From: Agromyces allii
GTDB lineage: Bacteria > Actinomycetota > Actinomycetes > Actinomycetales > Microbacteriaceae
NCBI RefSeq assembly: GCF_009749385.1
Contig: NZ_WBIN01000016.1
Span: 1 to 64,000 of the forward strand
Length of the DNA: 64,000 nt
Direction: 5' to 3'
The notes below the pieces were generated by a model, which saw only the letters and a list, made by a program, of their open reading frames with translations, did no database searches and was not told the DNA's origin. Shown one piece after another: positions 34,240 to 59,107 of this stretch; position 1 is the stretch's first letter; each line of letters starts with the position of its first letter. A program made the position numbers and the translations under genes.

Positions 34240-34587
34240 TCAGGGGATGTAGTCGACCACCCCGTGCGGCGCGACGGCGGCGCGGTAGCGCTCGACGAGC
34301 TCGCGCCAGCCCGACTGGGGCGTGAACTCGTGGGCGTGCACCGCCTCCGTGAAGTGCCAGAGCAGGTACGGATGCGCGCCGAGCACGTAGAGCGCCTCGA
34401 CGTCACGGGCGGCGAACGCGGCCCGCTCCGCATCGGTGAGCACCCGGTCGTCGGTCGCTCCGTCGGGCCCACCGGCCTCGCCGAGCCAGCGCTCGACGTA
34501 GGCCGCGGGGTCGGCGGCGTACTCGGCGACGCGCTCGTCGGAAAGCTCCACGAAGCGCATGAACTTGTCGACCATGTAACGGCTCAT
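34240..34587 (-). CDS. Small subunit-like protein of a LigAB-type extradiol dioxygenase
   Basis: Protein of 115 aa resembling the LigA (alpha) subunit of protocatechuate 4,5-dioxygenase: MSRYMVDKFMRFVELSDERVAEYAADPAAYVERW..., then DAERAAFAARDVEALYVLGAHPYLLWHF. LigA caps the active site of LigB. The ATG overlaps the LigB-like stop by four bases (ATGA), so the two are coupled as in known LigAB pairs. It is the last gene of the operon. The 3' flank has a 15-base direct repeat (GCGACCGGCCCGATC twice) running up to the stop. Confidence 0.82.
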   Translation of the reverse strand: MSRYMVDKFMRFVELSDERVAEYAADPAAYVERWLGEAGGPDGATDDRVLTDAERAAFAARDVEALYVLGAHPYLLWHFTEAVHAHEFTPQSGWRELVERYRAAVAPHGVVDYIP

Positions 34588-35429: not shown

Positions 35430-35470
35430 GTGCAGTCTCTCTCAGCGTCTCGGTTCTCGGATGTCGGGGC

Positions 35471-36334
35471 TCAGAGCCCGAACAGCGTGCGGGCGTTGTC
35501 GAGCAGGATCTTCTGCCGCGACTCGGGCTTGAGGCCGAGCTCGTCGAACTCGGTCATCCACCGGTCGGCGGTCATCACGGGCCAGTCGGAGCCGAAGAGC
35601 ACGCGGTCGCTGATGAGCGAGTCGGCGTAGCGCACGACCTCGGGCGGCAGGTACTTCGGCGCCCAGCCGGAGAGGTCGAGGTAGACGTTGGACTTGTGCC
35701 AGACCATCGCGAGGTTCTCGAGGTGCCACGGCCAGGCGGGGTGCGCGCTGATGATCTTCAGTTCGGGGAACTCTGCTGCGACGTCGTCGATGTAGGGCAC
35801 GGGCCTGGCGTTCTCGAGGCGGTACCCGCCGCCGCCCGGCGTGCCGGCCCCGGCGCCCGGGAAGCCCGAGTGGAACATCACGACGAGCCCGAGCTCGGCG
35901 CACGTCTCCCAGATCGGGAAGAAGCGCCGGTCGTTCGCGAGGAACTTCTGCCGCGACGGGTTCAGCTCGCCGACGCCCTTGATGCCGTACTCGGCGTGCA
36001 TGCGCCGGATCTCGGCGATGGCCGCCTCGCCCTTCCACGGGTCGATGCCCGCGAACGCGAGGAACACGTCGGGGTGGTCGACCTGCGCCTGGCCGAGCAG
36101 GTCGTTCGGCGCGCCCTTGATGCCCGAGGTCGTCTCGGAGTCGGAGTTCACGATGACCGCCATCATCCTGCGGTCGCGGTACTGGTCGGCCTGCTCGGCG
36201 AAGCTGACCACCGGGCGTTCCCGCCCGAAGTGCTTGGCCATCTGCTGGTGCCGCTGCCCCATCGCCACGAGGAACTCCTCGGTCTGCGGGTGCGTGTGCA
36301 CGTCGATGGCGACGAGGTCGTCGATGGCGCTCAT
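35471..36334 (-). CDS. Amidohydrolase-2 family protein (ACMSD/LigJ-like)
   Basis: Metal-dependent hydrolase, hydratase or decarboxylase of 287 aa. The metal motif AIDVHTHPQ (about residues 8-16), the internal VMFHSGFPG, IISAHPAWPWHLENLAM and the C-terminal FGSDWPVM mark the ACMSD-like amidohydrolase-2 family, whose members decarboxylate or hydrate ring-cleavage products. Together with LigAB it fits processing of a ring-opened dicarboxylate. Its ATG overlaps the CoA-transferase stop by four bases. Confidence 0.85.
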   Translation of the reverse strand: MSAIDDLVAIDVHTHPQTEEFLVAMGQRHQQMAKHFGRERPVVSFAEQADQYRDRRMMAVIVNSDSETTSGIKGAPNDLLGQAQVDHPDVFLAFAGIDPWKGEAAIAEIRRMHAEYGIKGVGELNPSRQKFLANDRRFFPIWETCAELGLVVMFHSGFPGAGAGTPGGGGYRLENARPVPYIDDVAAEFPELKIISAHPAWPWHLENLAMVWHKSNVYLDLSGWAPKYLPPEVVRYADSLISDRVLFGSDWPVMTADRWMTEFDELGLKPESRQKILLDNARTLFGL

Positions 36335-37587
36335 GCGGTGGTCCCTTCGGTGGGCAAGGCTGCGGGGGCGGATGTCGCGGCGGCGCGCTCGGCTCGGGCG
36401 GCGTCGGCGCCGCCGAGCACGGCCCCATTGTCCGCGCCGAGGCGGGGCGCCGCACGCAGCTCGGGCCGGCCGCTGCGGTGGAACCTCGTGCTCGGGGCGG
36501 GAACCCGCAGCGCCGCGCCATCCGGTCCGACGATCTCCTCGACGAGGCCCATCGACGCGATCTGCGGATCGTCGAACAGGTCGGCGACGGTGTTCAGCGG
36601 GCCGTGCGGGATGTCGGCGGCCGCGAGCCGGTCGAGCCAGTGCTGCCGCGGCATCCGCTCGGTGATGGCCTTGAGCTCGACGTCGAGCTCGTCGTAGTTG
36701 CGCACGCGCGCCTCGCGGGTCGCGAAGCGGGGGTCGGATGCCAGCGCCGGCGTCTCGAGCACCTCGACGAGTCCGACCCAGAACTTCTCGGGCACCGACA
36801 TGTGGATGACGAACGCGCGCCCGTCGGACCCGACGCACGCGTAGGCCTGCGCCCGCCTTGGCCGCGAGTCGGGCCCCGCGACCTGGCCGGTCTCGAGGTA
36901 GGTCGACGCGGCCTCGGTGAGGAAGTCGATGAGCGAGCCGACCATCGACACCTCGAGGTGCTCGCCCTCGCCCGTGCCGTCGCCTCTGCCGTTGCCGTCG
37001 CCGGCGCGGTCGCGGGCGTCCCGTGCGTGCAGCGCCGCGAGCACGGCCTGCGACGCCGACATGCCCGAGAGCAGGTCGGAGAACGCGGGCCCGAGCGGGC
37101 GCAGGGTCTCGGCGGGAACGACCTGGCTGTACATCGCGCCGACCGCCGAGATGACGGTGTCGTAGGCGGGACGCTTCGCATACGGCCCGTCGGCGCCGAA
37201 GCCCGTGATCGAGCACGTGATCAGCCGCGGGTTCAGGGCGTGCAGCACCTCGGGCCCGAAGCCGAGACGCGTGGCGACGCCCGGGCGGAAGTTCTCGATG
37301 AGCACGTCGGCCGTGCGCGCCAGCTCGAGCAGCTCGGAGAGCCCGTCGTCGGTCTTCAGGTCGAGCGTCACGGCGCGCTTGCCGCGGTTGTAGGCCGCGA
37401 ACTGCGGGCTCATGGTGCCGCTGCCCTCCCAGCGCCGCATCGGGTCGCCCTCCGGCGCCTCGACCTTGACGACGTCGGCGCCGAGGTCGGCGAGCAGCTT
37501 CGCGGCGTACGGACCCGAGATGTACTGGCCGAGCTCGATCACGCGGATGCCGCTGAGCGGGCCGGCCTCGGGTTGGTGCGTGTTCAT
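36331..37587 (-). CDS. CaiB/BaiF-family (class III) CoA-transferase
   Basis: Transfers CoA between carboxylates. The 418-aa length is standard. The family start IRVIELGQYISGPYAAKLLADLGADVVKVEAPEGDPMRRW and RGKRAVTLDL are clear. Asp171 in GPAFSDLLSGMSASQA occupies the position of the catalytic aspartate of formyl-CoA transferase. In this operon it probably activates the ring-cleavage product or a side-chain acid. The acyl substrate cannot be told from sequence. Confidence 0.9.
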   Translation of the reverse strand: MNTHQPEAGPLSGIRVIELGQYISGPYAAKLLADLGADVVKVEAPEGDPMRRWEGSGTMSPQFAAYNRGKRAVTLDLKTDDGLSELLELARTADVLIENFRPGVATRLGFGPEVLHALNPRLITCSITGFGADGPYAKRPAYDTVISAVGAMYSQVVPAETLRPLGPAFSDLLSGMSASQAVLAALHARDARDRAGDGNGRGDGTGEGEHLEVSMVGSLIDFLTEAASTYLETGQVAGPDSRPRRAQAYACVGSDGRAFVIHMSVPEKFWVGLVEVLETPALASDPRFATREARVRNYDELDVELKAITERMPRQHWLDRLAAADIPHGPLNTVADLFDDPQIASMGLVEEIVGPDGAALRVPAPSTRFHRSGRPELRAAPRLGADNGAVLGGADAARAERAAATSAPAALPTEGTTA

Positions 37588-37638
37588 CGGGTCGGATCCT
37601 CTCGACGGGTTCGGGCTCGTGCACGGGCGGGGCGGGCG

Positions 37639-38643
37639 TCACACCACATCGATGACCACCTTGCCCCTCGGCGAGGCGCCGAAGTCGCGGTACGCGCCGA
37701 CGATCTCGTCGAGCGGATGTCTCGAGCCGATGATCGGCGCGATCGCGCCGTTCTGCACGTGCCGCAACGCGCGGCGCACGTGCTCGAAGTCGGCGCTCGC
37801 GACGCCGCGCAGCTGCTTGCGCCTCAGGTACAGGTCGCGGGCGTCGAGTTCGAGGCGCGCGTCGACGGAGGCCGAGCAGAAGACGGCTCGTCCGCCCCAG
37901 CCGAGCGCGGCGACGCCGGCGGCGATGGTGGCGCCGTGGCCGCTCACGTCGATCGCGACGTCGAACGGTCCGGCCTCGGCGAGGCGCTCGGCGAGCTCGC
38001 CGGCATCGGCGGCGACGACCCGCTCGATCCCGTCGGTGCGGGGGAGTTCGCTGCGCGACGCGGCGACGACCGTCGCGCCCAGGAGCCGGGCGTAGGCGAC
38101 GGCCGCGTGGCCGAGCGTGCCGCCCGCCCCCGTGACGAGCACGCGGTCGGCGGCGGTGACGGCGGCGGCGTCGAAGGCGTTGATGACGATCGGCAGGCTG
38201 TGCACGGTCGCGCTCGCGGTCGCGGCGTCGAGCTCGTGGCGGTCGAACGCGTTGCGGGCGGGCACGACGACGAACTCCGCCGCTCCCCCGTCGCGGTGCA
38301 CCCCGAGCACGGTCTGCGACGGGCAGTCGGCCTCGTGACCGATGGCGCAGTGGACGCAGTCGCCGCAGGGGATGTTCGGCTTCGCCACGACCGCCTGACC
38401 GAGTCGACCGGCGTCCACACCCTCGCCGAGCTCGACGACGACGCCGGCGGGATCGAGGCCGAGCACGCGCGGCAGGCGCGCAGCGCGCCCGGGGCCGTGC
38501 CCCGCGATGACGTTGAGGTCGAGCTGGTTGAGGCTCACGGCCTCGACGGCGACGAGCACCTCGCCGGGCCCGGGAGCCGGGCGCTGCACGTCGACGACGT
38601 GCAGGCCCTCGAGGCCGTTGGTCTGCAGTCGTGCCGCTCGCAT
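37639..38643 (-). CDS. MDR-family alcohol dehydrogenase/quinone-reductase-like protein
   Basis: NAD(P)-dependent reductase of 334 aa. The structural-zinc lobe is present (PNIPCGDCVHCAIGHEADC), and the Rossmann motif is VLVTGAGGTLGHAAV. The catalytic-zinc cysteine is absent (SLNQLDLN in place of GICGSD) and the HE pair is also gone (LGLDPAG), so it may act as a zinc-free reductase despite the structural zinc. The ATG at 38643 is preferred because GAGGGCGG precedes it; an in-frame ATG 18 bases upstream is possible. First gene of the LigAB operon, facing the operator at 38690. Confidence 0.85.
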   Translation of the reverse strand: MRAARLQTNGLEGLHVVDVQRPAPGPGEVLVAVEAVSLNQLDLNVIAGHGPGRAARLPRVLGLDPAGVVVELGEGVDAGRLGQAVVAKPNIPCGDCVHCAIGHEADCPSQTVLGVHRDGGAAEFVVVPARNAFDRHELDAATASATVHSLPIVINAFDAAAVTAADRVLVTGAGGTLGHAAVAYARLLGATVVAASRSELPRTDGIERVVAADAGELAERLAEAGPFDVAIDVSGHGATIAAGVAALGWGGRAVFCSASVDARLELDARDLYLRRKQLRGVASADFEHVRRALRHVQNGAIAPIIGSRHPLDEIVGAYRDFGASPRGKVVIDVV

Positions 38644-38689
38644 CCGCCCTCGCTCCCGCATCGGTCACGACGTTCGATGTCGTGATTTC

Positions 38690-38704
38690 TGGATACCGTA
38701 TCCA
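38690..38704. promoter_or_regulatory. Palindrome TGGATAC-C-GTATCCA, GntR-type operator
   Basis: TGGATACCGTATCCA is a perfect 7+1+7 palindrome, 47 bp upstream of the alcohol dehydrogenase start. The ATACNGTAT core is characteristic of FCD-type GntR operators. A second copy lies at 38861. The 299-bp region between the two divergent genes otherwise shows no gene. Confidence 0.75.
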
Positions 38705-38860
38705 ATCTGCGACGACGTGTCCACCGTACCGCCGTCAGGCGCCGGCATCCGATCGCCTCGGATCACCCTGCGCCGGGGCCCGCGAACCCGCCCGGGCGAC
38801 GGCGCAATCCAACCGTAACCATCGGCTTCGCCCGGAATCATGGACACTCGGGGGGATTTT

Positions 38861-38873
38861 GGATACGGTATCC
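38861..38873. promoter_or_regulatory. Second palindrome GGATAC-G-GTATCC
   Basis: GGATACGGTATCC, a perfect 6+1+6 palindrome preceded by TTTT, lies 69 bp upstream of the binding-protein gene on the plus strand. It is near-identical to the palindrome at 38690, so one regulator probably controls both divergent units. Confidence 0.75.
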
Positions 38874-38942
38874 GTCAATTCGCACGAGGCCCCGTACTGT
38901 GCGGCAGGTCCCGTTCGAGACACCCGCTGAGAATGGAGAGTC

Positions 38943-40025
38943 ATGCGCAGATCCATCCGCCGATACGGCCTGACCGCGGCCGCCGCCCTCGCAGCATTCA
39001 CGCTGCTGGCCGGATGCGCCGCCCCCGGCGGTGACGCCGCCGAAGCCGAGCCGGTCACGCTCGGTGACGGCGAGCCCGGCCCCGCCGAGGACACCGAGAT
39101 CACGGTGGCCATCCCCTTCCCCGACATCACGATGTACTCGATGTACGTGCTCGCGACCGACCTCGGCTACTACGAGGAGGAGGGCCTCACCGTCGAGGTC
39201 ATCACGGCCGACAACGTCACGGCCGCCGTCGCCAGCGGCAGCGCCGACATCGGCGTCGAGTCCACCGGCACCGTCATCGAGGCGATCCGAGGCGGCGTCG
39301 AGGTCGACCTGGTCGGCGGCCACTACTGCCGTCAGAACTTCGACTTCGCCGCCCAGAAGGGCATCACGAAGGTCGAGGACCTCGAGGGCACGTCGATCGT
39401 GCTCGCCGGCACCCCCGGCGACCCCGCCGAGTTCCAGCGCAAGCTGGTGCTGAAGGAGGAGGGCTGGGATCTCGACACCGTGCAGACCGAGGTCGTCTAC
39501 CCGGGCCCCGGCTCCGAGTCGTGGACCGAGTTCTTCGTGAACGACCGCATCTCGATGCAGCCGTTCTACGCCGACGACCTTCCCGCGCTCGAGGAGCACG
39601 GGGCGAACGTCATCGTCGAGTCGCTGCGCAACTGGGCGAACGACGTGCAGGTGGCCGGCAGCGGCTGGGTCGCCGAGAACCCCAACACGCTCGTGCGCTT
39701 CCTGCGGGCGACGCTCAAGGCGACCGACTACATGACGGCGCCGATGCCCGGCGAGTTCCCCGAGAACGTCGACTCGGTGCTCGACATCTACGAGGCCAAC
39801 GACTTCGACGTCGCGGCCCTCCGCGACAGCGAGAGCCCCTGGGTGCTCGACGGCCACCTCGCGTGCTCGAACCTCTACTTCGACACCGAGGCATGGGACA
39901 CCACGATCGAGACCCAGTCGCTCGAGCCGATCGAGTTCGACACGGCGCAGCTCGTGTACCTCGAGAAGGCGCAGGAGCTGCTCGGCATCGACAATTCGGG
40001 CCCCGAGACGCTGCCCTACCCCTGA
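38943..40025 (+). CDS. NMT1/THI5-like substrate-binding lipoprotein
   Basis: Solute-binding lipoprotein of 360 aa. The lipobox is LLAGC (Cys25) after a basic, Ala-rich signal peptide. The mature part (TEITVAIPFPDITMYSMYVLATDLGYYEEEGLTVEVITADNVTAAVASGSADIG) is NMT1-like. No permease or ATPase adjoins it. The only orphan permease/ATPase set nearby is the operon at 42949-45466, which lacks a binding protein, so they probably form one importer. RBS GGAGAG precedes the ATG. The operator at 38861 ties its expression to the LigAB operon. Confidence 0.88.
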   Translation: MRRSIRRYGLTAAAALAAFTLLAGCAAPGGDAAEAEPVTLGDGEPGPAEDTEITVAIPFPDITMYSMYVLATDLGYYEEEGLTVEVITADNVTAAVASGSADIGVESTGTVIEAIRGGVEVDLVGGHYCRQNFDFAAQKGITKVEDLEGTSIVLAGTPGDPAEFQRKLVLKEEGWDLDTVQTEVVYPGPGSESWTEFFVNDRISMQPFYADDLPALEEHGANVIVESLRNWANDVQVAGSGWVAENPNTLVRFLRATLKATDYMTAPMPGEFPENVDSVLDIYEANDFDVAALRDSESPWVLDGHLACSNLYFDTEAWDTTIETQSLEPIEFDTAQLVYLEKAQELLGIDNSGPETLPYP

Positions 40026-42475: not shown

Positions 42476-42949
42476 TCAGGCGGCGCCGGCCGGTGGGAGC
42501 GCCGCGATCGCCTCGATCTCGAAGCGGTACGCCGGGGAGGCGAATCCGGCGACCTGCACGAGCGTCGACACCGGGAAGTCCCGGGTGAAGTGCCGGGCGC
42601 GGATCTCACGCAGGTCGTCGCGCACGAGCTCGAACGCCTCGCCGATGAAGACGTTCACCTTCACGACGTCGTCGGGCGCGGCATCCGCTGCTCGAAGCAC
42701 CGCGACGAGGTTCTCGAACGCGAGCTCGATCTGCTCGCGCGAGCTCTCGGGCATCGTGCCGTCGGGCCGCATGCCGATGATGCCGCTGACGAACAGCAGG
42801 TCGCCCGCCGGCACGCGGATCGCCTGGCTGAACGCCGCGGTCGGCGGATAGACGCCCTCGGGCACGATGACCTGCTTGCGCGGCGCGGGCACCGGCACCG
42901 ACTCCGGCACCGGCACCGGGCCCTGCTCGGGCACCTGCTGCCCGGACAT
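42476..42949 (-). CDS. RidA-family protein (Rid / YjgF-YER057c)
   Basis: Family of enamine/imine deaminases and related enzymes; RutC of the Rut pyrimidine pathway is a member. The 157-aa protein has a Pro/Val-rich head (about 1-25, with VPVPES and VPVPAP repeats) before the chorismate-mutase-like domain: FSQAIRVPAGDLLFVSGIIGMRPDG, EQIELAFENLVAVLRAADAAPDDVVKVNVFI. The C-terminal substrate arginine of archetypal RidA (usually in IEAIA-type ends after R) is present as YRFEIEAIAAL. Last gene of the operon; its start overlaps the permease stop as TGATG. It suggests an unstable enamine or aminoacrylate-like intermediate in the pathway. Confidence 0.88.
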   Translation of the reverse strand: MSGQQVPEQGPVPVPESVPVPAPRKQVIVPEGVYPPTAAFSQAIRVPAGDLLFVSGIIGMRPDGTMPESSREQIELAFENLVAVLRAADAAPDDVVKVNVFIGEAFELVRDDLREIRARHFTRDFPVSTLVQVAGFASPAYRFEIEAIAALPPAGAA

Positions 42950-43785
42950 CAGGTGCGCCCCATGATCTGGCGGTCGTCGTACCAGGGCGCGAGCCTCTTG
43001 CGCAGTACCGCGATGAGCGCGAGCGTCAGGTTCGCGATGATGACCATGACGATGACCATCGCGATCGCCTCGTCCATCTGGAACTGGTACGCCGCGAACT
43101 CGAGCATGTGGCCGAGCCCGCCCGTGCCGCCGAGGAACTCGCCGAGCACCTCGCCCGTGAAGCCGAGCGCGGCACCGCGCTGGATGCCCGCGAGGCTGTA
43201 CGGCAGGGTCGCCGGCAGGATCACCTTCCAGCCGAGGGCGACGCCGTTCACGCCGTACACGCGCCCCGCGCTGACCAGCGATGCGTGCACGGTGACCGCG
43301 CCCTCCATGGTGTTCAGGATGATCGGGAACACCGCGAGCAGGAACACGAGCGCGATCTTCGACTCGTTGCCGAGCCCGAGCACGAGGATGAACAGCGGCG
43401 CGAGCGCGACCTTCGGCGTCGAGTAGAGCAGCCAGAGGAACGGCGCGACGGTGAACCGCAGCACCGGCGACCAGCCGACCGCCAGGCCGACCGTGACGCC
43501 GACGACCACCGCGAGCACGAGGCCGATGAGCAGGTTCTGCATGCTGAAGGCGAACGCCTGCCAGAACTCGGGGTCGACGAGCAGTTGCAGGAACGCGGCG
43601 AACACCGCCGTGGGCGGCGGCAGGAACGCCTCGGGCACGAGGTGCAGCCACGAGACCGCGGCCTCCCAGATGAGCAGGATCGCGGCGATCACGCCCAGCA
43701 GGAGCCACGTCCACCGGCTGAGGCCGGCGCGGGGACGGCGCGGGGCCGGCGCGTTCAGCGCCTCGATCGAGACGGTGGCGGTCAT
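42949..43785 (-). CDS. ABC importer permease (NMT1-class system)
   Basis: Integral membrane permease of 278 aa with about six helices. The cytoplasmic EAA-like loop is SAGRVYGVNGVALGWKVILPATLPYSLAGIQRG. Belongs to the SsuC/TauC/ThiX group. It overlaps the second permease by four bases and RidA by one. No binding protein lies in this operon; the divergent lipoprotein at 38943 is the probable partner. Confidence 0.9.
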   Translation of the reverse strand: MTATVSIEALNAPAPRRPRAGLSRWTWLLLGVIAAILLIWEAAVSWLHLVPEAFLPPPTAVFAAFLQLLVDPEFWQAFAFSMQNLLIGLVLAVVVGVTVGLAVGWSPVLRFTVAPFLWLLYSTPKVALAPLFILVLGLGNESKIALVFLLAVFPIILNTMEGAVTVHASLVSAGRVYGVNGVALGWKVILPATLPYSLAGIQRGAALGFTGEVLGEFLGGTGGLGHMLEFAAYQFQMDEAIAMVIVMVIIANLTLALIAVLRKRLAPWYDDRQIMGRT

Positions 43786-44618
43786 CGGCTGCCCTTCCTC
43801 GTCCAGGGGGCGACCCGGCGCTCGATGAGCGTCACGACGCCCGTCATGCCGACGCTCCAGCACACGACGACGCCGATCGCGGCGAACGCCTGGTCGGTCT
43901 GATAGGTGTTGGCGGCCCGGATGATGAGCGCGCCCATGCCGCTCGACGAGCCCGAGAGCTCGGCCACGACCATGCCGATCGTCGCGAGCACCACGGCCTG
44001 CCTGAGCCCGGCGAAGAGGAACGGCACGGTCGAGGGCAGGAACACGCGTCGGTAGAGGTCGAGCTGCGAGCCGCCGTAGACGCGTGCGGCGCGAAGCAGC
44101 GACGGGCTCGTCGTGCGCATGCCGGCCGCGATGTTCAACATGATCGGGAACAGCGCGCTGACCACGACGAGGAAGATCACGGGGCCGATGCCGAAGCCGA
44201 ACCACGCCTTCGCGAGCGGCTGGTAGGCGATGGCCGGGGTCGCGTAGATGGTCCAGGCGATCGGCCCGACGACCTTGTCGACGGGCAGCGAGGCGCCCAT
44301 GAGCAGCCCGACCGGGATGCCGACGATCACCGCGATCGTGAAGCCCGTGAGCCAGGCCTGCAGCGAGACGGCGGCGTTCGCGGCGAGCGTGCCGTTGGCG
44401 ACGATCTCGGCGAAGCCCTGCGCGATCGCGAGCGGCGGCGGGAAGAAGACAGGGTTGATGAGCCCCCAGTACCCGACCACGAGCTGCCAGACGAGCAGTA
44501 CGAGGAACACCTCGACCGCGATGACGGCGGCCTTGCCGCCCGTCGAGAGCCCGGCGAGCCACGCGGCGGCCCCGCCACGACCGACGCGCGGGCCGCCGGT
44601 CGCGAAGAGCACGCTCAT
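43782..44618 (-). CDS. ABC importer permease (second of pair)
   Basis: Membrane permease, also 278 aa. The EAA-like loop is LLRAARVYGGSQLDLYRRVFLPSTVPFLFAGLRQA. Same group as its partner and about equal length, so a heterodimeric pore is likely. Coupled by ATGA overlaps to the ATPase upstream and the partner permease downstream. Confidence 0.9.
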   Translation of the reverse strand: MSVLFATGGPRVGRGGAAAWLAGLSTGGKAAVIAVEVFLVLLVWQLVVGYWGLINPVFFPPPLAIAQGFAEIVANGTLAANAAVSLQAWLTGFTIAVIVGIPVGLLMGASLPVDKVVGPIAWTIYATPAIAYQPLAKAWFGFGIGPVIFLVVVSALFPIMLNIAAGMRTTSPSLLRAARVYGGSQLDLYRRVFLPSTVPFLFAGLRQAVVLATIGMVVAELSGSSSGMGALIIRAANTYQTDQAFAAIGVVVCWSVGMTGVVTLIERRVAPWTRKGSR

Positions 44619-45466
44619 GATCCGCCCGCCACCGCGGCCTGGGTCGCCTCGGCCTGCAGGGCGTCCCACAGGTGGTCGCGCAGCTCGAGGAACCTCGGGT
44701 CGGACTGCACGCTGCGCTCCGAGCGCGGGCGCGCGAGGCCGGTCTCGATGACCTCCTTGATCGCGCCGGGATGGCTCTTGAACACGACGATGCGGTCGCC
44801 GAGCAGAATGGCCTCCTCGATCGAGTGCGTGATGAAGAGCACGGTCTTGCCGGTCGCGGCGATGAGCTTCTCGATCTCGTCGCGCATGACCTCGCGGGTG
44901 AGCGCGTCGACGGCGCCGAGCGGCTCGTCCATGAGCAGGATCCGCGGTTCGGCGACGATCGCCCGCGCCAGGCCCACCCGCTGCTGCATGCCGCCCGAGA
45001 GCTCCTTCGGGTACGACGACTCGAACCCCCGGAGGCCGACGAGCTCGATCGCCTCCTGCACGCGGTCGCGCCATCCGTCGCCCTTGAGGTGCTTCTGCAT
45101 CTCGAGCCCGAACTTCACGTTGTCGAAGACCGTGCGCCACGGCAGCAGCGCGTAGTCCTGGAAGACCACCGCGCGGTCGGGGCCAGGGCCCGTCACGGGG
45201 CGGCCGTCGACGAGCACCTCGCCCGACGTGGGCTTCACGAGGCCCGCGATGACGTTCATCACGGTGGTCTTGCCGCAGCCCGACGGGCCGAGCACGGTGA
45301 CGAACTCGCCCTCGTGCACCTCGAGGTCGACGCCCTCGACGGCGGTGAGGGTCGCCCCCGTGCGGGCCACGTGGTAGCTGACGGTCAGGTTCCGCACCGA
45401 GATCAGCGGGGCGGATGCCGCGGGCTCGGCCGGCCCGGAATCGGCGGCGGTCGTCGTCATCGTCAT
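44615..45466 (-). CDS. ABC importer ATPase
   Basis: Nucleotide-binding subunit of 283 aa. Walker A is GPSGCGKTT, Q-loop VFQDYALLPWRTVFDN, signature LSGGMQQR, Walker B ILLMDEPLGAVD, H-loop ITHSIEEA. The ATG at 45466 is chosen because GGAGAG stands seven bases upstream; the longer frame begins inside that site. A REP-like palindrome separates it from the upstream LLM gene, so either read-through or a second promoter would be needed for one transcript. Confidence 0.92.
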   Translation of the reverse strand: MTMTTTAADSGPAEPAASAPLISVRNLTVSYHVARTGATLTAVEGVDLEVHEGEFVTVLGPSGCGKTTVMNVIAGLVKPTSGEVLVDGRPVTGPGPDRAVVFQDYALLPWRTVFDNVKFGLEMQKHLKGDGWRDRVQEAIELVGLRGFESSYPKELSGGMQQRVGLARAIVAEPRILLMDEPLGAVDALTREVMRDEIEKLIAATGKTVLFITHSIEEAILLGDRIVVFKSHPGAIKEVIETGLARPRSERSVQSDPRFLELRDHLWDALQAEATQAAVAGGS

Positions 45467-45507
45467 GTCCTGTCTCTCCACATCGGTCTCGGTCGATCAT
45501 TCGGGCC

Positions 45508-45621
45508 GGTTGAGGAGCACCCGACGAACGAGGATGCGTATCGAAACCTGGCGGCCAGGGCTCGAGAGCCGAGCACCGGGTTTCGATACGCGTCGCCGCT
45601 TCGCTTCGGCGCTGCTCAACC
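45508..45621. repeat. REP-like palindromic element 1
   Basis: Imperfect inverted repeat. The left arm begins GGTTGAGGAGCAC (45508) and ends GTATCGAAACC (45548); the right arm begins GGTTTCGATACGC (45579) and ends GCTGCTCAACC (45621). It can form a long cruciform or RNA hairpin and sits in the gap between the LLM gene and the ABC ATPase gene. Related elements occur at 50308 and 58144. Confidence 0.8.
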
Positions 45622-45633
45622 AGCGGGGTGAGA

Positions 45634-46626
45634 CTAGGCCGCGGCCGCGTTCTCGCGCAGCTTCGGCAGCACCTCGGTGCCGAGCAGCTCGATCTGCTCG
45701 AAGAACCGGTCGAACTTGAACCGGAAGTCGAACACGAGGTGCTCGGTGCCGACGGCCTCGAACTTGCGGATCTCCTCGACGGCCTCGTCGGGGCTGCCGA
45801 CGATGAGCTGGCCCTCGAGGTCCTCGACGGTCTGGAAGCTGCCCGACTCGGGCTTGACCGTGAACCGCGCCTTGTTGGCCCAGGCGAGGAGCCCGGGGAT
45901 GTTGACGTGCTTCAGCGCCTCTTCGCGGGTCTCCTCGATCGAGGTCGGCGGAATGACGGCGATGGTCGGCATCGGCCGGCCCGAGACATCCGTCATGTCG
46001 CGCATGGTCGCGATGCGCTTCTCCATGGTGCGCAGCGAGATGCGGCCGGGCATCCAGCCGTCGGCGTACTCGGCCGCGAGGCGGGCGGAGGCGGGCGTCG
46101 CGCCGCAGTACCAGAACGGCACCGGGCCGCCGACGGGCTTCGGTTCGATCGTCACGTTCTCGAACGAGAAGATGCCGTCGTCGTAGGTGACGTCGTTCTC
46201 GGTGAACACGCGCTTCAGGATCTCGGCGTTCGAGCGCACCGCCTCGACCCGGTTCATGTCGCCCCAGCCGACGGCCTCGAACTCGTGGTCGAAGGTGCCC
46301 GCGCCGAAGCCCAGGATGAGGCGCGGACCGACGAGCTGGGTGATCGTGCCGGCCATGAGCGCGGTCACGAGCGGGTGGCGGAACGGGATCAGCGACCCGG
46401 TGCCGAGCTCGAGCTTCTCGGTGACGGCGCCGATCGCGGTGAGCGTCGTGAGCGCGTCGTAGAACGTGCGGTTGGGCTTCTCCATCTCGCCGTGGGGCTC
46501 GAAGACCAGGTGGTCGCGGACCCAGACCGAGTCGAAGCCCATCTTCTCGGCGAGCTGGGAGCCCTCGAGGAGCTTCTCCTTGCTCGCCTCTTCGCCGAAG
46601 TGCGGCAGCAGCAGACCGAATTTCAT
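45634..46626 (-). CDS. LLM-class flavin/F420 oxidoreductase
   Basis: Luciferase-like TIM-barrel enzyme of 330 aa. The family start MKFGLLLPHFGEEASKEKLLEGSQLAEKMGFDSVWVRDH and LILGFGAGTFDHEFEAVG are clear. Later segments match the F420-dependent subset better than the longer RutA-type FMN monooxygenases, but this is not decisive. It follows the dihydroorotase-like gene by two bases and precedes the ABC transporter, so it probably acts on the imported compound or its first hydrolysis product. Cofactor and reaction are inferred. Confidence 0.82.
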   Translation of the reverse strand: MKFGLLLPHFGEEASKEKLLEGSQLAEKMGFDSVWVRDHLVFEPHGEMEKPNRTFYDALTTLTAIGAVTEKLELGTGSLIPFRHPLVTALMAGTITQLVGPRLILGFGAGTFDHEFEAVGWGDMNRVEAVRSNAEILKRVFTENDVTYDDGIFSFENVTIEPKPVGGPVPFWYCGATPASARLAAEYADGWMPGRISLRTMEKRIATMRDMTDVSGRPMPTIAVIPPTSIEETREEALKHVNIPGLLAWANKARFTVKPESGSFQTVEDLEGQLIVGSPDEAVEEIRKFEAVGTEHLVFDFRFKFDRFFEQIELLGTEVLPKLRENAAAA

Positions 46627-46628
46627 GG

Positions 46629-48041
46629 TCACTTCCCTTCTGTTGCGGCCAGTTCGGCCGATCGTGCGGCCGGAGCGGCCGCGAGCTTCCCGAATCCGGG
46701 CTCGCCGACGACGACGCCGTCGACATACACGTCGTGGCCGCGCACGAGCGTGCGCTCGATGCGCGCGCTGATCGTGCGGCCGTTGTAGGGGGTCCAGCCG
46801 ATCTTCGACAGCACGTCGTCGTCGGTAATGGTCCACTGGTGCGCCATGTCGGCGATCACGATGTCGGCGTCGGCGCCCACCTCGAGCGTGCCCTTGACGC
46901 CCGCGAGGCCGAACTTGTCGGCCGGCACCTCGGCGACCATCTCGACGACGCGGTCGAGGTCGAGCTCACCGCGGTTCACGGCGTCGAGCATGAGCTCGTA
47001 GTAGTACTGGATGCCGGGGGTGCCGGTGTGGGCGCTCCACATCTGGGTCCAGCCGATCTCCTTCTCCTCGCGCGTGTGCGGCGCGTGGTCGGAGCTCGCG
47101 ACGTCGATGGTGCCGTCGCGCATGCCCTCCCAGATCGCGAGGCGGTTCTCGTCGGGCACCCAGTACGACAGCGCGTACGGGCCGAGGGTCTGCACGTCCT
47201 CCCAGGTGGAGAGGAACGGCGCCCAGTGGTTGACCTCGCACGTCACGTCGACGCCGTTCGCCTTCGCCCGGCGCACGGCCTCGATCGAGCGACGCGTCTG
47301 GATGTGCGCGATGTGCACGGGGCATCCGGATGCCTCGGCCAGGCGAAGCACGACGTCGATGGCCGTGTCCCAGATGACGCCTTCGCGGGCCGCGTAGGCC
47401 GACGCGTAGCCCTCGGGGGTGTTGTCGCCGCTGGCGAGCACCGCGCCCTCGATGTAGTCCATGAGCTTCTGGTCGTGGGGGTGCACGATGAACCGCTTGC
47501 CGGTCGGGGCGATGCGGTCCATGATCTCGAGCAGGTGGCCGTGGTCGTGGATGCCGGTGCCCGACGGGTGCGGGTAGTCGCGGCCCGTGTCGACGACCAT
47601 GTAGATCTTGAAGGCGTTGATGCCCATCTCGGCCATGGGCACGATCTCGTCGAACTTCGTCGGCGCGGGGTTGTGGTTCCAGTCGACGATCGAGCTCGAC
47701 GTGTAGCGCTCGAACACGTCGGTGAGGGTCTCGACGTCGACGGTCGGCGGCTTCAGGTTCGGCATGCCGAACATGGTCGTGACGCCGCCGGCCGCGGCCT
47801 GCCGCGAGGTCGTGAGGATGTCGTCCTTGTGCTCGTAGCCGGGCTCGCGGGTGTGCACGTGCACGTCGACCATGCCGGGCAGCACGAGCCGGCCCGACGC
47901 GTCGATCGTTCGCTCGGCGTCGACGGCGACGTCACGGGCGACGATGCCCGCGACCTTGCCGTCGTGCACGAGCAGGTCGCCGGCGACCGGGCCGCTCGGG
48001 GTGACGACGGTGCCGCCGCTGATTCTGAGGTCGATGCTCAC
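46629..48041 (-). CDS. Dihydroorotase/allantoinase-like cyclic amidohydrolase
   Basis: Binuclear zinc amidohydrolase of 470 aa opening a cyclic amide or ureide. Metal ligands are all in place: His61 and His63 in VHVHTREPG, Lys145 in NAFKIYM, His187/His189 (IVHPHDQ), His246 (IAHIQTR) and Asp318 (ASSDHAPH). The xxREPG form resembles dihydroorotase more than allantoinase, but pyr genes are absent and the operon is catabolic. Start is GTG, overlapping the alpha/beta hydrolase stop by four bases. A heterocyclic imide or lactam is the likely substrate; which one is unknown. Confidence 0.85.
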   Translation of the reverse strand: MSIDLRISGGTVVTPSGPVAGDLLVHDGKVAGIVARDVAVDAERTIDASGRLVLPGMVDVHVHTREPGYEHKDDILTTSRQAAAGGVTTMFGMPNLKPPTVDVETLTDVFERYTSSSIVDWNHNPAPTKFDEIVPMAEMGINAFKIYMVVDTGRDYPHPSGTGIHDHGHLLEIMDRIAPTGKRFIVHPHDQKLMDYIEGAVLASGDNTPEGYASAYAAREGVIWDTAIDVVLRLAEASGCPVHIAHIQTRRSIEAVRRAKANGVDVTCEVNHWAPFLSTWEDVQTLGPYALSYWVPDENRLAIWEGMRDGTIDVASSDHAPHTREEKEIGWTQMWSAHTGTPGIQYYYELMLDAVNRGELDLDRVVEMVAEVPADKFGLAGVKGTLEVGADADIVIADMAHQWTITDDDVLSKIGWTPYNGRTISARIERTLVRGHDVYVDGVVVGEPGFGKLAAAPAARSAELAATEGK

Positions 48042-48988
48042 TGGGGTGCCTCCGTGTGTTCGAGGGTCTCGCCGGGTGCGGCGGGGTCGGTGGTGCGCAC
48101 GACGACGTGGGCGGGCCGCACGTGGCGGTCGAGCCAGTCGACGATGCGCGGGGTGGTCTGCTCCCAGTAGCGGTCGTACGCCGCGTAGTGGGTGGTGTGC
48201 CGCTGCATGATGAGCTGCTTGGGCCCCTTGGCCGCGGCGTAGAGCGCCTCGGCGTGGTCGGTCGGCGTGGTCGCGTCACCCTCGACGCCGATCACGAGCA
48301 GCGGGGTGGTCAACCGCTCGGCGGCCGCGATGGGCTTGTACGCGAGGATCTCCTCGGCGCACGAGAGCGGGATCGCGCTCGGGATGCGGTCGTCGACGTC
48401 GGCCTTGATGGTGGTCGCGCGACGCTCGGGCGTCGGCACCATGATCTCCTCGCGCGGGTGCACGAGTCGGCCCTCGCCGGTGGTGACCCGCAGGCGGCGG
48501 TCCTCGTCGAGGCTCGCCAGGAACGCGAGCCACTCGTGCTCCTGGCGCATGCGGTGCAGCCAGTCGGTGCCGTCGGCGACGGGCACCTGGCTGACGGCGG
48601 CCTTGACGCGCGGATCGACGTCGGCGAGGAGCACGGCGTTGCCGCCGCCCGTGCCGCCCGTGCCGAAGACGCCGATCGCGTCGGCCACGACGTCGTCGCG
48701 CGTGGTCAGGTAGGTGACCGCGTTCACGAGGTCCTGGAGCTGGCGCGCCGGCGAGAGGATGCCTCGATCGCCCTCGGAGTCGCCGAATCCGCGGTAGTCG
48801 AAGATGAGCACCGCGAACCCGGCCGCGACGAGGGCCTCGTGGTAGCGCACGTAGAGCTTGGCGTCCTTCAGGCCGAGCCAGCCCGGGCCCTGCACGATCG
48901 CGCGGTAGGGGCCGGGAGTCTCGGGGGTTCGCCAGATCGCGGCGAGGCGGTCGCCGGAGCTGTAGAACTCGACGTTCGTGGTGATCAT
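48038..48988 (-). CDS. Alpha/beta-hydrolase-fold protein with altered nucleophile elbow
   Basis: Predicted hydrolase of 316 aa related to the X-Pro dipeptidase/dienelactone-type group: YRAIVQGPGWLGLKDAKLYVRYHEALVAAGFAVLIFDYRGFGDSEG (about 28-73) is the fold core. The nucleophile elbow reads FGTGGTGGGN (108-117): the expected Gly-x-Ser-x-Gly has Thr113 in the serine position, so ordinary esterase chemistry is doubtful. Near the C-terminus VIGVEGDATTPTDHAEALY carries a candidate acid, and HTTHYAAYDRY a candidate histidine. First gene of the seven-gene operon, 55 bp behind a TGGATCCA palindrome. Confidence 0.8.
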   Translation of the reverse strand: MITTNVEFYSSGDRLAAIWRTPETPGPYRAIVQGPGWLGLKDAKLYVRYHEALVAAGFAVLIFDYRGFGDSEGDRGILSPARQLQDLVNAVTYLTTRDDVVADAIGVFGTGGTGGGNAVLLADVDPRVKAAVSQVPVADGTDWLHRMRQEHEWLAFLASLDEDRRLRVTTGEGRLVHPREEIMVPTPERRATTIKADVDDRIPSAIPLSCAEEILAYKPIAAAERLTTPLLVIGVEGDATTPTDHAEALYAAAKGPKQLIMQRHTTHYAAYDRYWEQTTPRIVDWLDRHVRPAHVVVRTTDPAAPGETLEHTEAPQ

Positions 48989-49042: not shown

Positions 49043-49060
49043 ATTCTGGATCCAGAATCC
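49043..49060. promoter_or_regulatory. TTCTGGATCCAGAA palindrome, putative GntR operator
   Basis: ATTCTGGATCCAGAAT (49043-49058) is a perfect 16-bp palindrome followed by CC, giving GGATTCTGGATCCA on the minus strand (49060-49047). The same 14 bases recur at 58082-58095, upstream of the F420 operon. It lies 55 bp upstream of the alpha/beta hydrolase start and 138 bp upstream of the plus-strand binding-protein gene. Confidence 0.7.
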
Positions 49061-49197
49061 AGTATTGATTCCGAATCGATCGTCGCCCTAGGATGAACAC
49101 GACCGCCGATCCGTCTTGATCGGTTGTGATGGCCCGGGATTGGGCCGTGAGTCCTCGACAGCTGTCGAAGTCCGCACCGAACCGTCCCGGAGGAACC

Positions 49198-54210: not shown

Positions 54211-55245
54211 TTACTTCGCCGCGCGTGCGCGCAGCCGCGGCGCGAGGTCGCGCTCGAACAGCTGCAGGAACCGACGCTGGTCGTTCCCTGGCGCGTGGAA
54301 CACGAGGTGGTTGAAGCCCCAGTCCATGTACTGGCCGATCTGCTCGACGACCTCGTCGGGGTCGGTGCCCACGATCCAGCGCTTGGCGATCGTCTCGATC
54401 GGCAGGGCGTCGGCGGCGCGCTCCATCTCGACGGGGTCGGTGATGTCGTGCTTCTGCTCCTTCGAGAGCGAGAGCGGCGACCAGAAGCGCGTGTTGTCGA
54501 GCGCGGTCTCGAGGTCCTCCTCGTACGAGAGCTTGATCTCGATCATGCGGTCGTACTCGTCGAAGGTGCGCCCGTCGGTTCGGGCCTCGAGCCCCTCCTT
54601 CACGGCGGGCATGAGCTGGTCGGCGTAGAGCTCGGCGCCCTTGCCCGAGGTGCAGATGAAGCCATCGCCCGCGCGGCCGGCGTACTTCGCGACCTGGGGT
54701 CCGCCCGCGGCGATGTAGATCGGAACGCCGCCGTCGGGCCGGTCGTAGATCGACGCGTCGTGGGTCGAGTAGTACTCGCCGTCGAAGCTCACCTGGCCGT
54801 CGTCGAGCCACAGCGAGCGCATGAGGCGCACCGACTCGCGCAGGCGCGCATAGCGCTCGCGGAACTCGGGCCACTCCTGCTCGCCCGCTCCCTGGAAGCC
54901 CGTGGCGATCTCGTTGAGCGCCTCGCCCGAGCCGACGCCGAGGACGACGCGCCCCGGGTAGAGCACACCCATGGTCGCGAACGCCTGGGCGAGCACGGCC
55001 GGGTTGTAGCGGAACGTGGGCGTGAGCACCGAGGTGCCGATCTTGATGGTCGACGTGCGTTCGCCGACGGCGGCGATCCACGCGAGCGAGAACGGCGCGT
55101 GCCCGCCGGTGTGGCGCCACGGCTGGAAGTGGTCGCTCGTGAACACCGACTCCATGCCGTGCGCTTCGGCGGCGACGGCGATCTCGACGAGCTCGCGCGG
55201 GTCGAACTGCTCGGCGCTGGCCTTGTATCCGAGGGTGAGGGTCAT
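54211..55245 (-). CDS. fgd: F420-dependent glucose-6-phosphate dehydrogenase
   Basis: Oxidises glucose-6-phosphate and reduces F420 to F420H2, the main source of reduced F420 in actinobacteria. The 344-aa protein is very close to mycobacterial Fgd1: [35 protein letters not shown], and [14 protein letters not shown]. His39, Trp43 and Glu108 match the Fgd1 active-site residues. [19 protein letters not shown] and the C-terminal [22 protein letters not shown] are also conserved. It is the last gene of the LLM-cofE-cofC-fgd operon, overlapping cofC by four bases, so F420 maturation and reduction are co-expressed. Confidence 0.94.
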
Positions 55246-56021
55246 GCTGCTCCCTTTCTGGTGGAGTCGGTCGGGCGTGACGACGCCTGCGCGTCGGGTC
55301 GGTGGGCGTCGGGTCGGTGGGCGTCGGGCACGGCCGGGGTGTCGCGTGCGGCGAGGGCCGCCGTGGTGTGCGGGCCGAGTCCGAGTCGTACGGCGGCGTC
55401 GAGCGCGTCGACCGTGTCGACGTCGCGGCGCATGCGCTCGGCGAGGGCCGCGGGCACCTCGTGCGCGAGGTCGTGGAACCCGAGCGCGCGGTGCAGCAGC
55501 GCCGAGTCGGCGCCGAACGCTGGCTCGAACCGCGTGTGCGCGGCGGCCGTCGCGAGGGTCGTGCCGGTGCCCTCCGCGTCGGGCATGAAGGCGAGCGGAT
55601 GCCGCGACGCGGCGTCGAGCGCGGCATCGAGCGCCTGCGGGGTCAGCGCGGGCAGGTCGCCGAGCAGCACGGCGATGCCCCGGTGGCTGCGGGCCGGGCG
55701 GCCGCCGGCGGAGGCCGGCACGCGCTCATCGGCGGCGATGCGCCTGGCCTCCGCGATGCCGTGGCGGATCGCCGCCGAGAGCGACCGGGGCTCGGGCTCC
55801 GCGACGACCACGACACCGTTGGGCACCTCGTCGACGTGCCCGCTGAGGTCGCCGACGACGATCACCCGTGCGGCGCGGTCGGCGGCGAGCGCGGCATCGA
55901 TGGTGTCGAGCACGAACGCCCTGGCCAGGTCGGCGCGCGCGGTGCGGTCGAGGGAGGGCGCGAGGCGCGTCTTGGCCTCGGCGAGCAGCTTCACGGGCAC
56001 CACGACGTCGTACGTCAGCAT
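55242..56021 (-). CDS. cofC: 2-phospho-L-lactate/phosphoenolpyruvate guanylyltransferase (CofC/FbiD)
   Basis: Activates PEP (actinobacterial FbiD) or 2-phospholactate with GTP for CofD in F420 synthesis. The 259-aa protein has the family start [20 protein letters not shown] and [29 protein letters not shown] and [13 protein letters not shown] regions. The C-terminal tail carries a small tandem repeat ([12 protein letters not shown]). Its start overlaps cofE by seven bases and its stop overlaps fgd by four. The matching transferase cofD lies at 32102, so a de novo route to F420-0 is at least partly encoded. Confidence 0.92.
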
Positions 56022-56989
56022 GTCGTCGCCTCCGCCGCCGGAACGGCCGGCGAGACGCGCGATCGCGCCATGAGCGCCTCGGTGCGTGCGGCCGCGACGC
56101 CCTCGGCGTAGCCGGAGGCGAACCCCTCGGCCTGCCCGACGGCCCGCCCACGGGCGAACCCGGCCTCGTGTCCGTCGCGGCGCCCCAGTTCGACGGCCTC
56201 GTCGGTGCCGAGCCGGAACAGGTCGCGGTCGGACGGCCTCACGATCGAGGCCGCACCGGGCAGGTCGAGCGGTCCGACGGTGCGCGCGAGGCCCGAGACG
56301 ACGGCCACGGGGCATCCGCTCACCTTGCCCTTGACGAGGTCGCCGGCGCCCGCGAGCTCGTCGGCGAGGCAGGCCATGGTCACGGTGAGCGTTCGGCCGG
56401 CGGCGTCGGTGCCGCCGCGGAGGTCGTCGACGACGTGCACGCCGGCTGCGCCGATCGCGACGTCGGTCTGGCCCTCGCGCCACGGTCGGCCGAGCGTGTC
56501 GGAGAGGATCACGCCGACGTGCGCGCCGGTGCGTTCGCGGAGTCCGGCCGCGAGCGCGCGCGCCGAGGCATCGGGGTCGACGGGCAGGAGCAGCACGGTG
56601 CCGTCGGGCGTGTTCGACGCGTCGACGCCGGCCGCGGCGGCGACCATGCCCTGGCGGTTCTCGACGATGCGCGTGACGCCGCCCTCGTGCGCCCGGGTCG
56701 CGACGACGCGCACGGTCTCGTCGGTGATGGCCTGCTCGCGATCGGCCGCGTGCACGATGCGCCCCTCGGCCTTGGACACGATCTTCGAGGTCACGACGAG
56801 GATGTCGCCGTCGTGGAGCCCGCCGGCGGCCGCGGCGGCCCGTGCGATGAGGTCGACGAGGTCGTCGCCGGGGCGGATCTCGCCGAGGCCGGCGAGGGCA
56901 CGGACCGTGATGGCTGCGGCATCCGTCGCCCGATCGGTCGCCGCCCGCTGCGCGCGGGCGTCGGGTTCGGTCGCGAACGCGGTGCTCAT
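56015..56989 (-). CDS. cofE: F420-0:gamma-glutamyl ligase, copy 1 (operon copy)
   Basis: Adds glutamates to F420-0. The 324-aa protein has the CofE core: [18 protein letters not shown] (about 61-78), [52 protein letters not shown] and [17 protein letters not shown]. It lacks the C-terminal nitroreductase domain of mycobacterial FbiB; instead a helical tail ([20 protein letters not shown]) follows. The N-terminal 30 residues are extra compared with the second copy. It overlaps the LLM gene by four bases and cofC by seven. A paralogue lies 2.1 kb away at 59127. Confidence 0.92.
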
Positions 56990-57984: not shown

Positions 57985-58081
57985 CCCTCCATCCTCCCGC
58001 TCCCGCGCGGGGCCGGGGCACGCATTCGAACATTCTGCGGGCCCGTTCAGGTCGTCGGCATCCCGACAGGTTCAGTATTTC

Positions 58082-58099
58082 GGATTCTGGATCCAAAAA
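58082..58099. promoter_or_regulatory. TTCTGGATCCAAAAA word, putative GntR operator of the F420 operon
   Basis: GGATTCTGGATCCA (58082-58095) is identical to the minus-strand sequence at 49060-49047, and TTCTGGATCCAAAAA (58085-58099) is identical to 59092-59106. The site lies in an AT-rich patch about 100 bp upstream of the LLM-cofE-cofC-fgd operon. Confidence 0.7.
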
Positions 58100-58143
58100 G
58101 CAATACGCAGATCGGATGTCGCGGGCGGGCGGTGGGGGTTCTG

Positions 58144-59090: not shown

Positions 59091-59107
59091 GTTCTGGATC
59101 CAAAAAC
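59091..59107. promoter_or_regulatory. TTCTGGATCCAAAAA word upstream of the GntR gene
   Basis: GTTCTGGATCCAAAAAC shares 15 consecutive bases with the site at 58085-58099. It lies 40 bp before the GntR start and 20 bp after the end of the second cofE gene, fitting an autoregulatory operator. Confidence 0.7.

What the first reader, a model, noticed from the sequence alone, without database searches (positions are those of the whole stretch)
42476..48988. Rut-like operon logic with a cyclic amidohydrolase
Alpha/beta hydrolase, dihydroorotase-like enzyme, LLM oxidoreductase, importer and RidA protein recall RutD, RutA and RutC roles plus a ring-opening hydrolase. The LLM protein differs from RutA in length and start, and RutB/E/F are missing. 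This may be an undescribed route for a pyrimidine-like or imide heterocycle, joined to the LigAB operon by the shared importer.
Basis: inference. Interest (0 to 1): 0.65.

Follow-up and report, generated by a model that had tools for sequence, protein, structure and literature searches.

The report
F420-linked ring-opening regulon in Agromyces
A soil actinobacterium carries a conserved, probably jointly controlled set of genes that seems to import a ring-shaped nitrogen compound, reduce the ring with the rare cofactor F420 and cut it open; the compound is still unknown, but the genes and their shared control site make the idea testable.

Summary
The genes are real: an alpha/beta hydrolase (ABH), a dihydroorotase-like cyclic amidohydrolase (DHO), a luciferase-like oxidoreductase (LLM), an importer without its own binding protein, and a RidA protein. 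ABH-DHO-LLM are adjacent in 23 of 23 same-genus genomes with a close DHO, and in 17 of 20 named loci with DHO identity of 53% or more, against 0 of 42 below 40%. In 37 same-genus genomes the LigAB-operon gene AH2 and DHO occur in exactly the same 18. [quoted passage not shown] DHO keeps dihydroorotase's Arg/Asn/His substrate residues although a separate PyrC exists. Best reading: F420H2-dependent reductive opening of a carboxylated cyclic amide or imide, co-regulated with cofactor supply and an extradiol module. Substrate, cofactor and reactions are inferred, not shown.

The parts
48038..48988 (-). ABH, alpha/beta hydrolase with G[TS]GGTGG in place of GxSxG
46629..48041 (-). DHO, dihydroorotase-like cyclic amidohydrolase with R65/N95/H322
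45634..46626 (-). LLM, luciferase-like oxidoreductase, TIGR03619-related (153 bits, cut-off 166.9)
44615..45466 (-). ABC importer ATPase
43782..44618 (-). ABC importer permease 1
42949..43785 (-). ABC importer permease 2
   Evidence: synteny; not scanned for families
42476..42949 (-). RidA/Rid-family protein, not RutC
38943..40025 (+). NMT1/THI5-type binding protein, presumed partner of the importer
34240..38661 (-). LigAB operon: LigA 34240-34587, LigB 34584-35429, AH2 (Amidohydro_2) 35471-36331, CaiB-type CoA-transferase 36331-37587, Zn-dehydrogenase 37639-38661
54211..57984 (-). F420 supply operon: LLM-b 56986-57984, CofE1 56015-56989, CofC 55242-56021, FGD 54211-55245, all overlapping
58270..59052 (-). 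GntR/FCD regulator, candidate regulator of the regulon
49047..49061 (.). operator-like palindrome (exact) upstream of ABH
38690..38704 (.). operator-like palindrome (exact) on the LigAB-operon side
38860..38874 (.). operator-like palindrome (one mismatch; matrix score only 12.5) before the binding-protein gene
58081..58102 (.). operator-like site (one mismatch; matrix 30.9) upstream of LLM-b/CofE/CofC/FGD
59095..59109 (.). operator-like site (one mismatch; matrix 21.4) upstream of the GntR gene

Best explanation
The stretch is the ring-opening part of a regulon for a nitrogen-containing ring compound. The binding protein and ABC importer bring the compound in. LLM uses F420H2 to saturate a C=C or C=N bond next to a ring amide; F420 is made by CofC/CofE and kept reduced by FGD, under the same operator. 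DHO, a metal-dependent amidohydrolase with dihydroorotase's substrate-binding residues, hydrolyses the resulting carboxylated cyclic amide or imide (dihydroorotate itself or an isostere such as 2,6-dioxopiperidine-4-carboxylate). ABH cleaves the opened product and RidA removes reactive enamines or imines. The LigAB/AH2/CoA-transferase/dehydrogenase operon handles a step before or after, or another part of the same compound. A GntR/FCD protein is the likely switch. Shown: genes, families, conserved linkage, shared DNA site, conserved residues. Inferred: cofactor use, order of reactions, substrate, and that this regulator binds this site.
For: ABH-DHO-LLM adjacency 23 of 23 in the genus and 17 of 20 named loci at DHO 53% or more, 0 of 42 below 40%. 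DHO and AH2 in the same 18 of 37 genomes. Operator-like palindrome exact upstream of ABH in 23 of 23; a matrix trained on those sites alone finds sites before LLM-b in 17 of 18, the Zn-dehydrogenase in 18 of 18, the binding protein in 15 of 18 and GntR in 10 of 19 gene copies, and before 0 of 36 CofE and 0 of 23 FGD matches. FGD, CofC, CofE pass family cut-offs in one overlapping operon. FGD or a related LLM stands beside ABH in Ruania, Leifsonia and Solirubrobacter. CofE is in 22 of 26 host genomes; 3 of the 4 without it have DHO but no LLM nearby. R65/N95/H322 match dihydroorotase, and L-hydantoinase and allantoinases lack the set; a true PyrC is elsewhere.
Against: No assay or expression data. 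LLM is below the TIGR03619 cut-off, and its model aligns as well with FMN-dependent SfnG as with F420-dependent Mer (Z 33.1 each). All 37 same-genus genomes searched have CofE whether or not they have DHO, so co-occurrence with F420 says nothing there. One locus with LLM and ABH (L068) lies in a genome without a CofE match. Mycobacteria, Frankiales and others have the triad without the LigAB module, so the two parts are separable. The strict whole-genome pattern also hits two places on contig C22. GntR has a site in only 10 of 19. L054 has DHO without LLM or ABH.
Confidence: 0.6

Rival explanations
1. Rut-like oxidative route: LLM is an FMNH2-dependent monooxygenase that opens the ring, with ABH in the place of RutD and RidA in the place of RutC.
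For: LLM fold fits FMN monooxygenases as well as F420 enzymes; RidA is present in the window; isochorismatase-family hydrolases, the RutB family, lie near DHO in L056 and L076.
Against: RidA 30 of 169 bits on RutC, RutA not shown among LLM families; RutA below F420 enzymes by profile; F420 supply genes, and no flavin reductase that I recognised, in the regulon; a hydrolytic cyclic amidohydrolase is not part of Rut (recalled).
Confidence: 0.15
2. Two independent pathways that sit side by side: the triad for an N-heterocycle and the LigAB operon for an unrelated aromatic acid, sharing only an importer or a broad regulator.
For: Mycobacteria and Frankiales keep ABH-DHO-LLM without LigAB in the flanks; in five mycobacterial genomes AH2 is found only as 37-38% relatives in three and not at all in two at E 1e-30.
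Against: Same 18 of 37 genomes; the same operator-like site; order ABH-DHO-LLM-LigB-LigA in L060.
Confidence: 0.15
3. Plain reductive orotate catabolism: LLM reduces orotate to dihydroorotate, DHO acts as a catabolic dihydroorotase giving N-carbamoyl-aspartate.
For: Full Arg/Asn/His set of dihydroorotase; an aspartate ammonia-lyase follows LLM in L052 (731 of 510 bits); M20 or isochorismatase hydrolases near some relatives.
Against: ABH, LigAB, CoA-transferase and the molybdenum hydroxylases of other lineages have no role in it; DHO misses the pyrC_multi cut-off (256 of 279 bits).
Confidence: 0.1

Closest known systems
Reductive pyrimidine degradation (Pyd) pathway
   Same: Reduce the ring first, then open it with a cyclic amidohydrolase, then hydrolyse further (PMC7332683, passages seen).
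   Different: Pyd uses a flavin/Fe-S dehydrogenase; the genome has one DHO_dh-domain protein only, and here the reductase is an LLM and the hydrolase has dihydroorotase residues that hydantoinases lack.
F420-dependent picrate catabolism (npd genes, Nocardioides/Rhodococcus; recalled, cited in PMC8498797 references)
   Same: Aerobic catabolism by F420H2-dependent LLM enzymes with a dedicated F420 reductase.
   Different: Nitroaromatic substrate; F420 reduced by NADPH (recalled), here by FGD; no dihydroorotase-like hydrolase (recalled).
Rut pathway
   Same: LLM, Rid protein and alpha/beta hydrolase by superfamily.
   Different: No RutC-level match, RutA remote, no RutB/E/F among the seven genes, an added cyclic amidohydrolase.
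Lumichrome (lum) pathway of Nocardioides simplex (PMC12746152, outline and parts 1-2 of 6 read)
   Same: Hydrolytic opening of a heterocycle combined with an extradiol dioxygenase stage.
   Different: P450, TPP decarboxylase, xanthine-oxidase-type and Rieske enzymes; no LLM in the parts read.
Reductive uric acid pathway (PMC12507026, passages seen)
   Same: Authors propose an F420-dependent luciferase-family reductase beside an amidohydrolase in Chloroflexota.
   Different: SsnA-type amidohydrolase and purine substrate.

Membership tests
Rut pathway | RutA-type LLM (TIGR03612) | tested here: inconclusive
   RutA not among the 25 of 30 families shown for LLM; RutA structures matched at 59 bits, below F420 enzymes.
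Rut pathway | RutC-level Rid protein | tested here: not met
   29.8 bits, cut-off 169.1.
Rut pathway | RutB, RutE, RutF in the same operon | tested here: not met
   None among the seven genes.
Dihydroorotase (PyrC, TIGR00857) | Arg, Asn, His that bind dihydroorotate | tested here: met
   R65, N95, H322 align with 3mpg and are invariant in 7 sequences; residue roles from PMC8659124, passages.
Dihydroorotase (PyrC, TIGR00857) | Family score over the curated cut-off | tested here: not met
   256 bits, cut-off 279; the PyrC on contig C14 scores 404.
F420-dependent LLM (TIGR03619) | Family score over the cut-off | tested here: not met
   153.1 bits, cut-off 166.9.
F420-dependent LLM (TIGR03619) | Use of F420 | not testable with these tools
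   Context only: F420 operon under the shared operator; fold inconclusive.
Pyd pathway | PydA-type dihydropyrimidine dehydrogenase in the genome | tested here: not met
   One DHO_dh-domain protein only, on contig C16, presumed PyrD.
Class III extradiol dioxygenase (LigAB) | LigB and LigA domains over gathering scores | tested here: met
   LigB 92.3 (cut-off 26.3), LigA 26.3 (cut-off 25.3).
Serine alpha/beta hydrolase | GxSxG nucleophile elbow | tested here: not met
   G[TS]GGTGG in 16 of 18 relatives, ATGGTGG and GTGGVGA in the other two.

The most novel reading that the evidence does not exclude
An undescribed aerobic catabolic regulon in which one GntR/FCD protein couples F420 assembly and reduction to the F420H2-dependent reduction of a carboxylated N-heterocycle, its opening by a dihydroorotase-derived enzyme and follow-up by an alpha/beta hydrolase with a threonine nucleophile; LLM-amidohydrolase pairs, two of them in this window, would be a general bacterial module for reductive opening of N-rings.
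Probability: 0.4. Interest if true: 0.75.

Novelty: new variant of a known kind. Interest (0 to 1): 0.62.

Why it matters
F420-dependent catabolism is known for few substrates (recalled). A conserved regulon that ties F420 supply to a ring reductase and a ring-opening hydrolase would give a role to an unassigned LLM family, names a candidate regulator and operator, and predicts F420H2 as the reductant of N-ring breakdown in actinobacteria. None of the papers listed by my searches (titles and abstract starts seen) describes this cluster; the nearest statement seen is a proposed F420 reductase in Chloroflexota uric acid clusters (PMC12507026, passages).

Tried and rejected
The lumichrome (lum) and 4-hydroxypyridine (kpi) pathways were compared from papers and set aside because their enzyme sets differ. 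Isonicotinate/citrazinate was considered because 2,6-dioxopiperidine-4-carboxylate is a dihydroorotate isostere (my chemical reasoning) and a TcuA-like gene lies near DHO in L076 (594 bits, cut-off 369) and L059 (336, below it); the paper search gave nothing usable, so it remains a candidate only. The LLM fold comparison does not decide the cofactor. The promoter scan found no sigma-70-like site; it reads the ABH palindrome as a weak terminator. Plasmids: 1039 records matched DHO, every one below 60% identity. The SDR and XRE genes at 40-42 kb matched in only one of the 20 stretches (L026) and were left out. A 296-genome phylum sample gave DHO matches at E 1e-85 in 3 genomes: the own one, one same-genus, one other at 45%. 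Over the whole DHO tree the LLM-linked label needs 6 changes (at least 5 forced; shuffled mean 20.5), so linkage is not a single-clade trait; in the 18-row actinobacterial clade (support 100/100) 17 are linked. The window-wide scan for the bare palindrome with up to 2 mismatches gives 18 matches against 9.3 expected, so only the exact, one-mismatch and matrix-supported sites are used.
Full report
What is there. The seven genes lie on the - strand at the stated coordinates: ABH 48038-48988, DHO 46629-48041, LLM 45634-46626, then after 167 bp ATPase 44615-45466, permeases 43782-44618 and 42949-43785, and RidA 42476-42949. Most junctions overlap by 1-4 bp. The 412-aa ORF listed from 42476 to 43714 is mostly out-of-frame reading of the permease; the RidA start is at 42949. 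The importer lacks a binding protein; an NMT1-type one (38943-40025, +) stands between it and the LigAB operon (34240-38661, -).

Where it comes from. Two contigs of unnamed same-genus genomes have the lengths of named Agromyces contigs (G040:C5 and A. subbeticus, 213,461 bp; G029:C5 and A. italicus, 778,213 bp), so the genus is inferred to be Agromyces (Microbacteriaceae).

Conservation in the genus. DHO of 82% identity or more is in 23 of 60 same-genus genomes, a 53% relative in one more. In all 23, ABH and LLM flank DHO. Longer stretches were fetched for 19 of these 23 and for the 53% locus. In 18 of the 19 the binding-protein gene is there, and the LigAB-operon genes follow as far as the stretch reaches; the exception, L035, is an 8.6-kb contig. 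RidA was matched in 15 of 19. The 53% locus has only DHO with an ATPase and a permease. Among the first 37 same-genus genomes, AH2 at 90% identity or more and DHO occur in exactly the same 18. Common descent inflates such counts.

Conservation outside. At DHO identity of 53% or more, 17 of 20 loci have both LLM and ABH (40% or more, within 8 kb); L079 and L084 are cut by contig ends and L054 has neither. At 40-52%, 5 of 18 have LLM and 3 of 18 ABH. Below 40%, 0 of 42 have either. Hosts with the triad include Agromyces, Microbacterium, Leifsonia, Ruania, Mycobacterium, Actinomadura, Solirubrobacter and Frankiales, Chloroflexi, Acidobacteria and Deltaproteobacteria MAGs. The LigAB module is linked in another order in Actinomadura, and in MAG L060 the order is ABH-DHO-LLM-LigB-LigA. 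A molybdenum-hydroxylase family is near DHO in nine loci (L050-L054, L056, L065, L070, L076) that show no LigAB module in their flanks; it was checked by family for L050 and L070 only, in L070 with a CoxG-type protein. The window's own genome has no such hydroxylase.

Shared control. The DNA upstream of ABH, between the LigAB operon and the binding-protein gene, upstream of the LLM-b/CofE/CofC/FGD operon and upstream of a GntR/FCD gene shares a palindrome. TGGAT-N5-ATCCA is exact upstream of ABH in 23 of 23 genus loci. In the whole genome a stricter 16-base form with one mismatch allowed hits two places in the island and two on contig C22, none for the backwards control; it does not catch the degenerate sites at 58081 and 59095. 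A matrix trained on the 23 ABH sites alone gives 4 merged sites of score 15 or more in the 64-kb window, all in these promoters; 20 block shuffles gave 2 in all at that score and none at 20. The site before the binding-protein gene scores only 12.5. In 36 genus loci (578 kb; several genomes appear twice, so rows are not independent) a site of 18 or more lies within 250 bp upstream of LLM-b in 17 of 18, the Zn-dehydrogenase in 18 of 18, the binding protein in 15 of 18 (these two share one intergenic region), GntR in 10 of 19 and ABH in 19 of 19 (in-sample), and upstream of 0 of 23 FGD and 0 of 36 CofE matches, which here lie inside or beside operons. 69 of 72 sites are so placed; one more lies just before LLM-b at a stretch end, and two are one place of one genome, between GntR and FGD. 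In Ruania and Leifsonia a GntR gene, a site and FGD or LLM-b come directly before ABH; in Actinomadura a GntR gene with a site follows LLM. That this GntR protein binds this site is inferred.

Cofactor. FGD (613 bits, cut-off 420), CofC (123, 105), CofE (230, 181) and, further off, CofD (309, 257) pass their cut-offs. LLM-b, CofE1, CofC and FGD overlap behind one operator-like site, so F420 supply appears to be part of the regulon. CofE is in 22 of 26 genomes holding DHO loci; of the four without it, L062, L074 and L080 have DHO without LLM nearby and L068 has LLM. In the genus all 37 genomes searched have CofE, so it does not discriminate; a second full-length CofE is seen in 8 of the 18 triad genomes and in none of the other 19, where G022 and G027 have weak or broken second matches. 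A profile of the LLM family matches F420-dependent Mer, Adf and FGD (113, 101, 94 bits), with an uncharacterised Bacillus LLM at 111, above RutA (59). But the LLM model aligns as well with FMN-dependent SfnG as with Mer (Z 33.1 each). F420H2 use is therefore inferred.

DHO. It misses the cut-offs of the 25 families shown, of 50 matched. Metal-ligand positions H61, H63, K145, H187, H246 and D318 are invariant in seven divergent sequences. R65, N95 and H322 align with a dihydroorotase (3mpg); the L-hydantoinase 1gkr keeps only the His, and the three allantoinases shown lack the Arg and the His. These residues bind dihydroorotate in dihydroorotases (PMC8659124, passages). As PyrC proper (404 bits) is on another contig, DHO is probably a catabolic enzyme for a ring that carries a carboxylate.

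ABH. GxSxG is replaced by G[TS]GGTGG in 16 of 18 aligned relatives, ATGGTGG and GTGGVGA in the other two; Asp238 is invariant and His267 nearly so. In the AlphaFold model (mean pLDDT 89.6) the strand ends at 112 and the helix starts at 113, so Thr113 may be the nucleophile; the HMMER alignments to solved structures place the gap ambiguously here. The nearest structure is 7qjm, an alpha/beta hydrolase of Chloroflexus.

Mechanism and doubt. The proposed order (import, F420H2 reduction, hydrolytic opening, ABH cleavage, Rid clean-up, the LigAB operon before or after) follows from family chemistry and context. The place of the LigAB operon is the weakest point, since other lineages do without it. 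The substrate is not identified.

An internal parallel. At 13-24 kb the window has a hydantoinase (539 bits, cut-off 393), a nitrilase-family hydrolase, an aminotransferase, a methylmalonate-semialdehyde dehydrogenase, a second NMT1-type importer and an LLM of TIGR03842 (585 bits, cut-off 295), in a genome with one DHO_dh-domain protein. This looks like a Pyd pathway with an F420-family LLM in place of its dehydrogenase. It has no operator-like site. Of 30 TIGR03842 loci with short flanks, the window's included, 9 have the hydantoinase within about 1.5 kb and 6 more only the nitrilase or the semialdehyde dehydrogenase; 15 show none.

Verdict. I file it as a new variant of a known kind, with confidence 0.6 in the general mechanism.

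Noticed in passing
window 13463-23695: A reductive-pyrimidine-like cluster (hydantoinase, nitrilase-family hydrolase, aminotransferase, MMSDH, importer) with a TIGR03842 F420-family LLM where a dihydropyrimidine dehydrogenase would be expected; the genome has one DHO_dh-domain protein only. A candidate F420-dependent uracil reductase.
   Followed up: partly
window 56015-56989 and 59127-59906: Two CofE genes; among 37 same-genus genomes a second full-length CofE is seen only in 8 of the 18 that carry the DHO/AH2 island.
   Followed up: partly
window 56986-57984: LLM-b (TIGR03557 282 bits, cut-off 210), first gene of the F420 supply operon; in Leifsonia L049 a relative is the gene directly before ABH. 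Its role, second F420 reductase or pathway reductase, is open.
   Followed up: partly
L050:3461-4483, L063:3777-4799: A second, different LLM (L050: TIGR03619, 210 bits, over the cut-off) lies near the triad in mycobacteria and in a Deltaproteobacteria MAG.
   Followed up: no
L050-L054, L056, L065, L070, L076: A molybdenum-hydroxylase family lies near DHO in nine loci of several phyla, suggesting hydroxylation of the ring before reduction in those lineages.
   Followed up: partly
L050:15612-17333, L059:12410-14089, L077:3569-5254: TPP-dependent enzymes of one family recur near the triad or its relatives (L077 by similarity only).
   Followed up: no
window 48038-48988: ABH lacks the usual Ser elbow; Thr113 may be the nucleophile.
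   Followed up: partly
window 27628-31911: A 1427-aa surface-type protein with repeats; identical 15-mers from it recur in the operator scan.
   Followed up: no
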